A DNA stretch of 64,000 nucleotides from Gemmatimonadaceae bacterium (lineage in GTDB: Bacteria; Gemmatimonadota; Gemmatimonadetes; Gemmatimonadales; Gemmatimonadaceae). The first letter of the stretch is position 1, and the number at the start of each line of letters is the position of its first letter. The translations under genes were made by a program, and so were the position numbers. Positions 3,977 to 12,261 of this stretch are shown piece after piece. The stretch covers positions 124,001 to 188,000 of the forward strand of contig JAICWO010000006.1 in NCBI GenBank assembly GCA_025934775.1, in the 5' to 3' direction. The notes beneath the pieces were generated by a model, which saw nothing but the letters and a program-made list of their open reading frames with translations, had not been told where the DNA came from and did no database searches.

Positions 3977-4681
3977 ATGAGCGGTTACTCCCGATCTCTT
4001 CTCGCGTGTTTCGTCGCTTTGGCTGCTGCCGCATGCTCGGACTCGGCCACTAGTCCGAACTCGTCGCGGGAGCTTGCTGCGAGCAATCGTCCTTCGCTGA
4101 CGCTCTCGCCGAATAGCGTTTTCGCCGGCGACAGAACTGTCACGTTCGACGTCACCGCCGCGGGCGGCACGTTCAACATTGGTGGCATGTATGCGGTGAC
4201 GTTTCCCGCGAATTCAGTCTGTGATCCAAACACGTCCGGCTACGGGCCCGGCACATGGGACACTAGCTGCACGACGCTGGCGGCGGGTCAGAGCGTTACG
4301 ATCACCGCAACATATGGATTTCAGTTCGGCGGCCCGGTCGTTGATTTCTCGCCGGCGCTTCGGTTCAATCCGAACACGAACGTTACGATCTCATCCGGGC
4401 TCTATGCGCCACTGCTGACGGCGTTCCGCAGCTACTGGCTGGCTAACCCGTCATCGCTCCACTGGCTCGGTATCTACTACACCCCGGACCTCGGCCAGAC
4501 GTTGATTACGGATGGCGCGTTTGATTCGTCGCTCCGCACGCACGTCAATCTTACCACCGGGATTATCTGGCGGCGCGTGAAGCATTTCAGCGGCTATAAT
4601 CTCGCGACCGGCCAACCCTGCACGCCTTCGCCCGATGATCCAGACTGCGTCGACGACGGCGGACCAATCATCGAGCAGTAA
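3977..4681 (+). CDS. Exported lipoprotein of unknown function
   Basis: A 234-residue protein with a hydrophobic N-terminus ending in a lipobox (AAAC, Cys at about residue 20), so it is probably lipid-anchored. The mature part is rich in Thr, Ser, Gly and aromatic residues and looks beta-sheet rich. Residues about 40-115 resemble an immunoglobulin-like or ZU5-like fold: LTLSPNSVFAGDRTVTFDVT, then a pair of Cys. The C-terminus is acidic with two further Cys (QPCTPSPDDPDCVDD). It stands alone, about 120 bases after the preceding gene, and is followed directly by a strong terminator. I do not recognise a characterised family. Confidence 0.7.
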   Translation: MSGYSRSLLACFVALAAAACSDSATSPNSSRELAASNRPSLTLSPNSVFAGDRTVTFDVTAAGGTFNIGGMYAVTFPANSVCDPNTSGYGPGTWDTSCTTLAAGQSVTITATYGFQFGGPVVDFSPALRFNPNTNVTISSGLYAPLLTAFRSYWLANPSSLHWLGIYYTPDLGQTLITDGAFDSSLRTHVNLTTGIIWRRVKHFSGYNLATGQPCTPSPDDPDCVDDGGPIIEQ

Positions 4682-8344: not shown

Positions 8345-8778
8345 CGTTCGCGATCTCCGGGGCGTTCGAGCTTGGTGGGCTCGCATTCGAGGATGCAGTC
8401 CGGCTTGCGATCGTTTCATCGAGGTGCGACCTGTACAATGGTCGACCGCGGTGTCCGCCGCTCGCGAGATTTGCGCGCAAGACACATCTCTTGCGCGTCA
8501 AGAGTACACAGAATCAAAGATGTGTAGCACGCCCGGTCAGTCCGCATCTGGGCGATCCGTACCGATGCGATGTTCATTACAGTGTTATTGCAATCCAAGG
8601 TACGGCAAGTCGTTATTGCAATCCAAGGTACGGCAAGTCGGCGCCGACCATTGCGGATTCGACGACCATTTGCTATGAGCGGCTCGCGCCGATTCCGATC
8701 GAATACGGCGCCACAGGCGGGCGATGCGGCCACGGCGGAACTGTGTTCACGCCAGTGCAAGCCGACTAGGAGGATCAA
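8345..8778 (+). other. 434-base stretch without a confident gene
   Basis: No intact, convincing reading frame was found between the sulfur-carrier gene and the cysteine-rich peptide gene. It contains a tandem 28-bp duplication. A stop codon (TAG at 8767-8769) sits immediately on top of the AGGAGG ribosome site for the next gene. Removing one copy of the duplication would join a frame beginning at ATG 8565 to that stop, giving a short cysteine-containing peptide. This stretch may therefore hold a broken small gene. Confidence 0.4.
8584..8639 (+). repeat. Tandem duplication of a 28-bp unit
   Basis: Two perfect, directly adjacent copies of a 28-bp unit beginning GTTATTGCAATCCAAGG and ending GGCAAGTC. 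Because 28 is not a multiple of three, the duplication shifts any frame crossing it. In one frame the unit reads YCNPRYGK. Confidence 0.95.
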
Positions 8779-9040
8779 ATGACGTCGCGCCACTTGCTGT
8801 CGCTCTCTTCCGTTGTATTCGTCATGGGCCTGGTGCAGCTGTCGCTTCCCGCGACGAGCAGGGGCCGACGCGCGGCAAGCTCAGACTAGGTTGTGCGGAC
8901 CGGTCTGCTATCTCGTATGCCCGGACAAAGACGTCCTCGAGGCTGACTGCCAAGCGCAAGGATCGGGTTGCCACACCGACAATGACTGCGGTGTGAGCTC
9001 GTGTGACAGCGGTGGTGGGTTCGAGGCAAGCTGCTCATAA
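8779..9040 (+). CDS. Secreted cysteine-rich peptide, frame broken by one base
   Basis: An ATG at 8779 with an ideal ribosome site (AGGAGG, 4 bases upstream) opens a typical signal peptide (SSVVFVMGLVQLSLPA), but this frame stops at 8889 after 36 codons. From inside the same stretch a +1 frame runs to TAA at 9038-9040 and encodes a core with eight Cys (LCGPVCYLVCPD, then DC, GC, DC, SC and SC) in about 50 residues. Dropping one G from the GGGG at 8861-8864 joins them into one 86-residue secreted protein with four potential disulfides. It could be a true frameshift mutation, a sequencing error, or, less likely, programmed frameshifting. The DsbA-like gene downstream supports a disulfide-rich product. 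The family is not recognised. Confidence 0.5.
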
Positions 9041-9126
9041 CGCCCAGTCCCACACTTGGCAGAGGTTGGCGTGCTCGCCGCCGGGCACGCGCGAGTGACA
9101 GTGCGTGAGCTCAAGGGAGGCACGCC

Positions 9127-9825
9127 GTGGCACACCGACTAGAACAGCTTGCAACAACCGCCGTGACCATTTCGGCGATGTGCGTTGCGGCGGCCGTCGT
9201 GCATCGAGAATTCATCTCACCGCCGCAGTCCGGTATGCGCACGGATATCCTCGCAGCGAGCCGCGTCGCTGGTTTTTCAGATTTGACGAGAGCTGGCATA
9301 ACGATCGGCGACTCCGCCGCGCCGATCAAAGTCCTGGTCTTCTCGGACCTGGAATGCCCGGTTTGCCGTCGTTTTCATCAGCGACTAATGGAGGAGGAGG
9401 CGCGTTTCGGGAAGGAGGTCGCGGTCGTTTTTGTTCACTTCCCGCTCGCGATGCACCGGTTTGCGCGTCAGGCCGCTCAAGCTGCCGAATGCGCCGAGCG
9501 TCAGGGCCGATTCGGCGAGTTCGTCAATCAGGTGTACGAGAACCAGGATTCTATCGGCCTCAAGTCATGGAATCGATTTGCACATGATGCCGGCATCGAT
9601 GATACGATATCGTTTGGTCGCTGCGCGTCGAGCCGTGTACCGGATCCTCGCATCCAACGTGGAGTGGATATCGGAACGAAGCTTCACGTGGAAGGCACGC
9701 CGACGGTCATCATCAACGGCTGGCGCTTCAACAATCCTCCCTTCGATTCTCTTGCGAGTGTCTTCCGCAACGTAATCCGCGGGCAGCCACCACTCGGCAC
9801 CGCCGCTCATGTGAGCGGCTATTGA
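9127..9825 (+). CDS. DsbA-like thiol-disulfide oxidoreductase, membrane anchored
   Basis: A 232-residue protein with an N-terminal membrane anchor (about residues 9-27) and a thioredoxin_4/DsbA-like periplasmic domain. The redox motif is Cys77-Pro-Val-Cys80 within VFSDLECPVCRRFH. The cis-Pro loop is VEGTPTVIING. The helical insert FARQAAQAAECAERQGRFGE is typical of this family. It is expected to introduce or reshuffle disulfides outside the cytoplasmic membrane. The GTG start at 9127 is set by a GGGAGG site six bases upstream. It lies between a cysteine-rich secreted peptide and a plug-type surface protein, in the same direction with short gaps. The peptide is a natural candidate substrate; that link is inference. 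Confidence 0.88.
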   Translation: MAHRLEQLATTAVTISAMCVAAAVVHREFISPPQSGMRTDILAASRVAGFSDLTRAGITIGDSAAPIKVLVFSDLECPVCRRFHQRLMEEEARFGKEVAVVFVHFPLAMHRFARQAAQAAECAERQGRFGEFVNQVYENQDSIGLKSWNRFAHDAGIDDTISFGRCASSRVPDPRIQRGVDIGTKLHVEGTPTVIINGWRFNNPPFDSLASVFRNVIRGQPPLGTAAHVSGY

Positions 9826-9846
9826 CGCCGTAGGAGGATTGGGCTC

Positions 9847-12261
9847 GTGTTTCGGACCTGCGCGGTGTCAGGTTGTCTCACAGCGCTACTCGCGGCTTCG
9901 AGCGCTGCCCAGGTGATCACTGGCCGGATCATCGCAGCTGACAATGTGACGCCAGTATCAGGTGTGGTGATCGTTGCCGCGGACTCCACGGGTCAGTCGG
10001 CGCGTGCGCTCAGCGGGGCAACTGGTGAGTTCTCCATTGCGATTCCGCGTCCGGGCCGCTACACGGTTCACCTCTATCGGATCGGGTTTCGCCCGTTGGC
10101 TCACGCGCCAGTCGATGTCAGTGATTCGGGCCTCCACGGTTTGACGCTCGTCGCTCCCGGCGAAGTTGTGTTGCTTTCGTCATTGAGATCGCAGGCTCGC
10201 AGCTCGTCGTGTCGCATCGCGTCCGATTCCGGACTGGCTATCGCACGAGTGTGGGAACAGGGCCGTATCGCCATGCTCTCGGTCGGCTTGAGCGCCGAGT
10301 CGCCGCCTATCATCGCGGACTGGATCGAGTTCGACAGGACGTTAGCCACCGACGGTCGGCACGTTCGACACCAGTCCACGCGGCTGACCAGAGCGCCCAC
10401 GACCCATGCATTCACGAGCCCGAATCCCGAGCTGTTGCACTCACAGGGATACGTCGTGCAGGCGCCTGATGGCGTTCAGTTCTTTGCGCCCGACGCCGCA
10501 GTGCTACTCAGCGACGACTTTGCGAACGATCACTGTTTTGAAATAGTGGGGGAAGACAAAGCTCATCCCAGTGCGATCGGGATTGCGTTCCACCCGAACG
10601 ACTCAAGGAGCGGCGTCCCGGACATCGATGGTGTGGCGTGGCTGGAGAAGGCATCCGCTGAGCTACAAGAAGTAAAATTCGAGTACGTAAACCTGCCTGA
10701 CGCGGTCCGGGCGGCGAGACCCGGAGGCGATGTGTCGTTCAAGCGCATGCCTCGTGGTGGCTGGATCATAAGTGCCTGGCAAGCGCGATTTCCTGTCCTT
10801 CAGCCACATGCCGCGATTAGCGACGGAGGGGCCAGGCGCCGCGTTTATTCTAGCTCAGACCTCGACCTCGTCGGCATGCAGGTCACGGGCGGGATCGTGA
10901 GTCGGGTGCGAGACGGAGGCGTGGTCGTCTATGAGTCACCAGGAGCGTCGCCTAAGCTTCGCTTCATTTCTCGTGACACGCTGGTTCCCGCCAGCGGGGT
11001 CGAGCTGACGCTAGAGGGAACTGATTTCCGCGGCGTCTCTGATTCGGCCGGCACTGTGGAGATTCCGCCCATTTTGGATGGCGACTTCGTACTCAAGTAC
11101 CGCCTCGGATTGCCTGTACCGCTGCGCGATATCGTCTTCGAGGGCGAGATCGCGCCGAGCGCGAGTCCGATCGACTCGATCTTTCTCCCGACGGCCGACG
11201 AGATTGCGCGACGAGTGTGCGGAAAAAGTGTGGGAAGCCGATCGGGTTTGCTGATTGGGACGATTGAGGATACGCGCCCGCGCCGCTCCGGCACGCCGGT
11301 GATCCTATCGTGGCAAGAGCCGATGCAAGACAGTACTGGGTCATCTCATACCGAACGCACGCGTGAAGCCACGGTGGACAGCGCAGGACATTGGTGGGCG
11401 TGCGGCGTGCCACGACAGACGATCGTGACGGCAAGCATAAGCAGAGCGTCCGGCGTCGCATCAAACGTCGCTACGATCCCGCCGAATCAGGCTTGGAGGA
11501 TGGTGAATCTGGCCATTCCATCGGAACCGGCGAAATCGGCGGCGTCATTCGGCACGACACCCCCTGACCAACGCCTGGAAATCACCGTTTTGGACGAAGG
11601 CGGACTACCTATACCTGGGGTCGAGCTTTCGTTATTGAAGGCGAGCACTCTGCAGCAACGCGCAAGTACCGATTCGGCGGGGCGTATCGTCGTCACCGAA
11701 ATCGATTCCGGGCTCACGAGGGTAACCGCACGCAAGCTCGGTTTCGTCCCGGGCGCGATCGACATCCGGTTGGGCCGCGGCACGACTCGCGCTCCAATCA
11801 TCCTCTCGCGTACGGCACCACCGCTCATGGACACAGTTCGCGTTTTGGCGACTGCGAACACCGACGCAAGAGCCCCCGGATTCGAGGAGCGGCGGCGCGA
11901 TCATATCGCGGCGCTCAGTTTGGATGAGACGGACATCCGGGGGCGCAATGCGATCGGCCTTTCACAACTGCTAGTCGGAGTACCGTCATTATCGATATCT
12001 CAGGCCGGTGGCCGAGTGTCCTTCGAATCGACCCGTGGCGCGGTTTTTGAGCGCGGCAAGCTGGCCCCATGCCGCATGGTTGTCGTCGTCGACGGCATCG
12101 CGCTCAATCCAAGCGGCGAGGAGGTGCAGGCCGCTGCGTTGCCGCGTCCCGGCGACATTCATGCGCTCGAGGTCTTTGCCGGTGGCGCGACGTTGCCGCC
12201 GAACCTCGCAGTCCTCAGTACCTACAACCGGTGTGGGATGGTCGTGGTGTGGACTCGGTAA
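9847..12261 (+). CDS. Carboxypeptidase-regulatory-like / TonB-plug-like exported protein
   Basis: An 804-residue exported protein with a signal peptide (SGCLTALLAASSAAQ). Residues about 23-105 form a carboxypeptidase-regulatory-like domain beginning VITGRIIAADNVTPVSGVVI. Two further domains of the same kind follow: one around residues 370-440, and one around 575-655 with EITVLDEGGLPIPGVELSLL. The C-terminal 130 residues look like a TonB-receptor plug (TDIRGRNAIGLSQLLVGVPS, VVVVDGIALNPSGEE, then the end CGMVVVWTR). No beta-barrel follows, so it is not a transporter by itself. GTG at 9847 follows AGGAGG and is 21 bases after the DsbA-like gene, so co-transcription is likely. The function is unknown: surface display, peptide binding or partnering a separate barrel are possible. 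Confidence 0.75.
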   Translation: MFRTCAVSGCLTALLAASSAAQVITGRIIAADNVTPVSGVVIVAADSTGQSARALSGATGEFSIAIPRPGRYTVHLYRIGFRPLAHAPVDVSDSGLHGLTLVAPGEVVLLSSLRSQARSSSCRIASDSGLAIARVWEQGRIAMLSVGLSAESPPIIADWIEFDRTLATDGRHVRHQSTRLTRAPTTHAFTSPNPELLHSQGYVVQAPDGVQFFAPDAAVLLSDDFANDHCFEIVGEDKAHPSAIGIAFHPNDSRSGVPDIDGVAWLEKASAELQEVKFEYVNLPDAVRAARPGGDVSFKRMPRGGWIISAWQARFPVLQPHAAISDGGARRRVYSSSDLDLVGMQVTGGIVSRVRDGGVVVYESPGASPKLRFISRDTLVPASGVELTLEGTDFRGVSDSAGTVEIPPILDGDFVLKYRLGLPVPLRDIVFEGEIAPSASPIDSIFLPTADEIARRVCGKSVGSRSGLLIGTIEDTRPRRSGTPVILSWQEPMQDSTGSSHTERTREATVDSAGHWWACGVPRQTIVTASISRASGVASNVATIPPNQAWRMVNLAIPSEPAKSAASFGTTPPDQRLEITVLDEGGLPIPGVELSLLKASTLQQRASTDSAGRIVVTEIDSGLTRVTARKLGFVPGAIDIRLGRGTTRAPIILSRTAPPLMDTVRVLATANTDARAPGFEERRRDHIAALSLDETDIRGRNAIGLSQLLVGVPSLSISQAGGRVSFESTRGAVFERGKLAPCRMVVVVDGIALNPSGEEVQAAALPRPGDIHALEVFAGGATLPPNLAVLSTYNRCGMVVVWTR

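What the first reader, a model, noticed from the sequence alone, without database searches (positions are those of the whole stretch)
8779..12261. Secreted cysteine-rich peptide, DsbA-like oxidase and plug-domain surface protein in one locus
Seen: a signal peptide plus an eight-Cys core, then a membrane-anchored CPVC oxidase, then a carboxypeptidase-regulatory/plug protein without a barrel, all same direction with strong ribosome sites. Inference: the oxidase may fold the disulfide-rich peptide, and the plug-type protein may bind, display or export it. This would be a small dedicated system for a disulfide-stabilised secreted peptide.
Basis: partly seen in the sequence, partly recalled or inferred. 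Interest (0 to 1): 0.68.

Follow-up and report, generated by a model that had tools for sequence, protein, structure and literature searches.

The report
Cysteine-rich secreted peptide with own oxidase
Bacteria of the phylum Gemmatimonadota carry, in dozens of versions, a two-gene unit that pairs a small secreted peptide held together by disulfide bonds with a private enzyme that probably makes those bonds; the unit appears to be undescribed, and the copy in this window carries a frameshift in the peptide gene.

Summary
The finding is real and larger than reported. The window holds a signal-peptide/8-Cys peptide gene, a membrane-anchored DsbA (CPVC) and an 804-aa CarboxypepD_reg/plug protein with no barrel. 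The peptide gene is frameshifted: signal 8779-8889 in one frame, Cys core 8864-9040 in another. In related genomes the peptide is intact and sits beside DsbA: 27 of 41 DsbA relatives have one directly upstream, against 2 of 148 other genes in the same loci and 0 of 16 housekeeping DsbAs. A peptide profile found 35 places in 390 phylum genomes; all 30 fetched have DsbA alongside, including families absent from training. Mature peptides nearly always have an even Cys count (52 of 55) on a recurring 8-Cys framework with otherwise divergent sequence. The third gene varies: plug protein, six-bladed beta-propeller (twice fused to the DsbA), or neither. The plug family is broad and mostly found outside these loci. 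No Pfam or NCBIfam family fits the peptides and I found no paper on them. Best reading: a dedicated oxidative-folding module for diversified, disulfide-stabilised exported peptides. The peptides' final job (antagonism, inhibitor, ligand) is unknown.

The parts
8584..8639 (+). 28-bp perfect tandem repeat (2 copies) upstream of the peptide gene; role unknown
8768..8773 (+). AGGAGG ribosome site of the peptide gene
   Evidence: sequence
8779..8889 (+). peptide gene, first frame: signal peptide, 36 codons then stop (frame-broken)
   Evidence: matches positions 1-30 of the peptide-family profile
8864..9040 (+). peptide gene, other frame: mature core with 8 Cys (frame open 8783-9040)
   Evidence: matches positions 27-79 of the profile, beats 1000 shuffles
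9127..9825 (+). membrane-anchored DsbA-like thiol oxidase (GTG start, CPVC, GTPT cis-Pro loop), 232 aa
9847..12261 (+). 804-aa exported CarboxypepD_reg (two copies) plus TonB-plug-like protein without a beta-barrel; optional, exchangeable third gene

Best explanation
A Gemmatimonadota module, 'cysteine-rich peptide + dedicated DsbA'. The peptide (about 60-100 aa, Sec signal, typically 6 or 8 Cys in the mature part) is exported to the periplasm. There the membrane-anchored DsbA encoded next to it oxidises its cysteines, and is itself probably recharged by the genome's single VKOR. The compact, disulfide-braced peptide then acts outside the cytoplasm together with an exported partner, either a beta-propeller or a CarboxypepD_reg/plug protein. 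Shown here: conserved gene pairing, signal peptides, Cys parity and framework, DsbA fold and catalytic motif, two DsbA-propeller fusions. Inferred: that this DsbA oxidises this peptide, the partner's role, and the final function. For the final function I think binding or inhibiting something outside the cell (antagonism, inhibitor or receptor ligand) is likeliest, because cores diverge strongly while the framework persists. In the window's copy the peptide is frame-broken, so that locus may make no peptide unless the base calls are wrong.
For: Peptide directly upstream in 27/41 DsbA relatives against 2/148 other genes in the same loci (Fisher p = 3e-20). None beside 16 housekeeping DsbAs. Of 86 DsbAs from other phyla none has a convincing peptide upstream and one has one downstream. 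A peptide profile not told about DsbA hit 35 places in 26 of 390 phylum genomes, and all 30 fetched loci have an adjacent DsbA, including seven genomes of two families absent from training. Same profile: 0/247 genomes and 1/193 (marginal, interrupted by stops) in the groups around an Acidobacteria and a Myxococcus genome. Even Cys count in 52 of 55 distinct peptides (p = 1.5e-12). Recurring 8-Cys framework; several 6-Cys forms lack C2 and C7 together. Third gene: propeller in 16, plug in 12, fusion in 2 of 46 peptide loci; 0/16 housekeeping. DsbA model pLDDT 89, best PDB matches C. diphtheriae DsbA/TsdA and BdbD. VKOR present elsewhere in the genome.
Against: No biochemical data. The Cys-to-Cys pairing is not determined; the unaided peptide model is weak (pLDDT 63). 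Peptide-linked DsbAs do not form one clean clade (15 label changes on the tree). A few relatives lack a detectable peptide (L079, L101, L105, L139). The window's own copy is frame-broken, and a second copy in the same genome (L075) has no usable start for the peptide and a frame break in DsbA.
Confidence: 0.74

Rival explanations
1. The peptides are metal-binding or redox-buffer peptides of the periplasm, and the DsbA relative works as a reductase/isomerase or metal chaperone (ScsC-like) rather than as an oxidase that folds a structural peptide.
For: High Cys density; ScsC copper-resistance proteins are among the structural neighbours of the DsbA.
Against: Even Cys counts in 52/55 and a spaced 8-Cys framework look like disulfides; no recurrent metal transporter or sensor among the neighbours. 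Other DsbAs match better than ScsC.
Confidence: 0.1
2. The adjacency is ordinary operon linkage: DsbA serves the third gene (plug or propeller protein) and the small peptide is a bystander or a regulatory leader.
For: The third gene is enriched next to these DsbAs and is twice fused to them; some DsbA-plus-third-gene loci lack a detected peptide (L079, L105, L152).
Against: In several loci the peptide follows DsbA instead of leading it (L085, L104, L142, L135, L151), which rules out a leader; the peptide is present without any plug or propeller gene in about a third of loci; every fetched profile hit has DsbA alongside but not always a third gene.
Confidence: 0.1
3. A DsbA-assisted bacteriocin or toxin-like system: the peptide kills or inhibits neighbours, and the propeller or plug protein is the self-protection or release partner.
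For: Same logic as sublancin (SunA with BdbA/BdbB, PMC6405829); strong divergence of cores (20-44% identity where DsbAs share 45-54%); tandem peptide copies (L103); several copies per genome.
Against: No recurrent immunity protein, ABC transporter-peptidase or modifying enzyme; no activity data; the propeller and plug families are broad.
Confidence: 0.3
4. At this very locus the feature is a decaying pseudogene pair and not a working system.
For: Frame break between signal and core; a second degenerate copy in the genome (L075); lower third-position GC than flanking genes (0.64-0.68 against 0.84-0.90).
Against: DsbA and the plug gene are full length with good ribosome sites; an error in an assembled contig cannot be excluded.
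Confidence: 0.45

Closest known systems
Sublancin and other glycocin clusters (sunA, sunT, sunS, bdbA, bdbB); pediocin with PedC
   Same: Small Cys-containing exported peptide encoded beside its own thiol-disulfide oxidoreductase (PMC6405829; pediocin and PedC in PMC4919988).
   Different: Here a Sec signal instead of a leader cut by an ABC transporter, 6-10 Cys, no glycosyltransferase or transporter, a diderm host, and a beta-propeller or plug protein as third gene.
EntV of Enterococcus faecalis (PMC6606811) and DsbA-dependent secreted peptides generally
   Same: Secreted peptide whose activity needs a disulfide bond.
   Different: As I recall, EntV relies on a general DsbA encoded elsewhere; here the oxidase is encoded next to its peptide, many times over.
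NVEALA family (PF14055) of Bacteroidota
   Same: From memory: short signal-bearing peptides found near six-bladed beta-propeller lipoproteins.
   Different: No PF14055 match in the window's genome or in the peptides scanned; whether NVEALA loci carry a DsbA was not tested.
Thioredoxin_4/DSBA oxidoreductases (BdbD, C. diphtheriae DsbA/TsdA)
   Same: Fold, CPxC, cis-Pro loop, membrane anchor.
   Different: A diversified set (several per genome) tied to peptide genes, distinct from the housekeeping copies.

Membership tests
DsbA / Thioredoxin_4 oxidoreductase | Thioredoxin fold with CxxC and cis-Pro loop | tested here: met
   PF13462 1.1e-22; C77-P-V-C80 and T191-P192 invariant; model pLDDT 89 matching DsbA structures
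DsbA / Thioredoxin_4 oxidoreductase | Oxidase activity on the adjacent peptide | not testable with these tools
   needs biochemistry
TonB-dependent receptor | Plug followed by a 22-strand outer-membrane barrel | tested here: not met
   Plug is just below the Pfam cut-off and the protein ends right after it
NVEALA peptides (PF14055) | Match to the family profile | tested here: not met
Glycocin/bacteriocin cluster of sublancin type | Oxidoreductase gene beside the peptide gene | tested here: met
Glycocin/bacteriocin cluster of sublancin type | Transporter-peptidase and glycosyltransferase in the cluster | tested here: not met
   not among the recurrent neighbour families of the 11-kb loci
Glycocin/bacteriocin cluster of sublancin type | Antibacterial activity | not testable with these tools
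   needs assay

The most novel reading that the evidence does not exclude
A phylum-wide, previously undescribed class of framework-conserved, loop-divergent disulfide-rich peptides (a bacterial parallel to venom or defensin-type scaffolds), each folded by a co-evolving private DsbA and received by a cognate beta-propeller or plug protein, used for antagonism or signalling between soil bacteria.
Probability: 0.3. Interest if true: 0.85.

Novelty: new variant of a known kind. Interest (0 to 1): 0.66.

Why it matters
Oxidases dedicated to one peptide are known mostly from a few bacteriocin clusters. A large, diversified set of one-peptide/one-oxidase pairs in a poorly cultured phylum would give many natural enzyme-substrate pairs with which to ask how DsbA proteins choose substrates, and a new source of disulfide-stabilised scaffolds. 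If the single-contig relative carrying one copy (L102) is the cultured Gemmatimonas aurantiaca type strain, as its contig length suggests to me from memory, the idea is testable now.

Tried and rejected
Direct similarity search with the window's peptide found only chance-level hits, because its N-terminal part is out of frame and cores diverge; going through DsbA neighbours solved this. Pfam, NCBIfam and PDB-type searches gave no family for the peptides (Pfam and NCBIfam only; the peptides were not run against PDB sequences). Single-sequence folding of the core gave a weak model, not used. I could not fold relatives' peptides or propellers (tool rule). Literature searches for cysteine-rich peptides in Gemmatimonadota, NVEALA and related terms gave nothing on this system. 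A codon-phase scan of the window showed no general excess of frame breaks, so a poor assembly overall is not indicated, but one local error is not excluded. I rejected 'leader peptide' because the gene also occurs downstream of DsbA, and 'programmed frameshift' because intact relatives show none.

Full report
What is in the window. The three genes lie on the + strand. The DsbA-like gene (9127-9825) and the 804-aa CarboxypepD_reg/plug gene (9847-12261) are intact with good ribosome sites. The peptide gene is not one frame: ATG 8779 gives a 36-codon signal-peptide frame ending at 8889, and the eight-Cys core is in another frame, open 8783-9040. Both halves match consecutive parts of the family profile made from intact relatives, so this is a real member that is either broken or mis-sequenced. 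A second copy in the same genome (L075) lacks a usable peptide start and has a frame break in its DsbA, while two further copies (L076, L077) look intact.

Where it lies. The window is part of a 4.88-Mb genome in 47 contigs. One relative placed in the same family (G080) shows the same match coordinates as a replicon of Gemmatirosa kalamazoonensis, so the family is that of Gemmatirosa (Gemmatimonadaceae).

Is the association real? DsbA relatives were sought in 179 genomes of the family and 79 loci were fetched around them. With one fixed rule (hydrophobic signal after a positive residue, at least 5 Cys in a short mature part), a peptide ends within 450 nt upstream of 27 of 41 DsbA relatives but of only 2 of 148 other genes in the same loci (Fisher p = 3e-20). 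Sixteen housekeeping-type DsbAs, which form two well-supported groups on the tree, have none. Inspection added Cys-rich cores at loci that the rule missed (L075, L091, L096, L141).

Independent test. A profile of 25 peptides, which knows nothing of DsbA, was run on 390 genomes of the phylum: 35 places in 26 genomes. All 30 fetched loci have a DsbA next door, including seven genomes of two families that were not in the profile. It misses the window's own genome, so 26 is a lower bound; together with the DsbA route about 40 genomes carry the module. The same profile gave 0 of 247 and 1 of 193 (marginal, with stops inside) in the groups around an Acidobacteria and a Myxococcus genome. Among 86 DsbAs from other phyla only one Chloroflexi locus (L230) has a convincing peptide nearby, downstream.

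The peptides. Fifty-five distinct peptides have 8 (32), 6 (16), 10 (4), 9 (2) or 5 (1) Cys in the mature part; 52 are even (p = 1.5e-12). An 8-Cys framework, roughly C-x2-4-C-x3-6-C-x6-9-C-x3-6-C-x4-8-C-x4-8-C-x5-13-C, recurs, and the window core (spacings 3,3,9,6,5,4,9) fits it. Three 6-Cys forms (L086, L111, L153) lack the second and seventh Cys together, which suggests that these two pair; this is weak evidence from few lineages. Between modules whose DsbAs share 45-54% identity the cores share only 20-44%, much of it Cys. No Pfam or NCBIfam family fits.

The oxidase. Invariant residues are those of a DsbA (CPxC, T191-P192) plus a second conserved Cys pair, C122 and C166. The model (pLDDT 89) has an N-terminal membrane helix and matches C. 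diphtheriae DsbA/TsdA and BdbD best. One VKOR gene elsewhere in the genome could recharge it.

The third gene. In 46 peptide loci a beta-propeller gene directly follows DsbA in 16, a plug-type gene in 12, and in two the DsbA is fused to the propeller (L095, L148); the 16 housekeeping DsbAs have neither (p = 3e-6). The propeller assignment rests on DUF5128 and NHL-type matches. The plug-type family is large, and 28 of the 29 closest relatives of the window's copy have no peptide or DsbA nearby. The core module is therefore peptide plus DsbA, and the third gene is recruited. AraC-type or ECF sigma genes lie upstream in several loci.

How it most likely works. Shown: conserved pairing, export signals, Cys parity and framework, DsbA fold, fusions. 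Inferred: the DsbA oxidises its neighbour peptide; the propeller or plug protein is its exported partner; the peptide acts outside the cytoplasm. The final function is open; antagonism is the leading guess but has no direct support.

Relation to the known. The logic resembles sublancin-type clusters, where BdbA/BdbB accompany the peptide (PMC6405829, read), and pediocin with PedC (PMC4919988, abstract). The module is not a member of those: no transporter-peptidase or glycosyltransferase recurs, and export is by a Sec-type signal. It is not NVEALA by profile. I found no description of it in the paper library; the library lacks many subscription papers.

Limits. Gene calls in the loci are rough; genomes are mostly unnamed; signal peptides were judged by a simple rule; loci were chosen by similarity to the window's DsbA, so the 27/41 rate describes close relatives and not all DsbAs.

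Noticed in passing
window 8584-8639: Perfect 28-bp tandem repeat (two copies of GTTATTGCAATCCAAGGTACGGCAAGTC) about 140 bp before the peptide start; role unknown.
   Followed up: partly
window 8770-12261: DsbA and plug genes have lower GC at third positions (0.64-0.68) than flanking genes (0.84-0.90), suggesting a different evolutionary history or recent acquisition.
   Followed up: partly
L095:866-2725 (-) and L148: DsbA fused in one reading frame to a beta-propeller-like domain; L095 lies next to a 9-Cys peptide.
   Followed up: partly
L103:4625-5277: Three tandem, similar 6-Cys peptide genes before one DsbA, as from recent duplication.
   Followed up: no
L230 (Chloroflexi MAG), just downstream of the DsbA at 4001-4474: An 8-Cys signal-bearing peptide right after a DsbA in another phylum; single case, could be convergent.
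   Followed up: no
L011:1120-2044: Two neighbouring precursor-like proteins with nitrile-hydratase-type leader ends (ETVSGG, ETVAGG), probably RiPP precursors in a same-genus genome; judged by eye.
   Followed up: no
L102 (contig of 4,636,964 bases): A single-contig relative carries one intact module with a plug gene; its length matches what I recall for Gemmatimonas aurantiaca T-27, a cultured strain.
   Followed up: no
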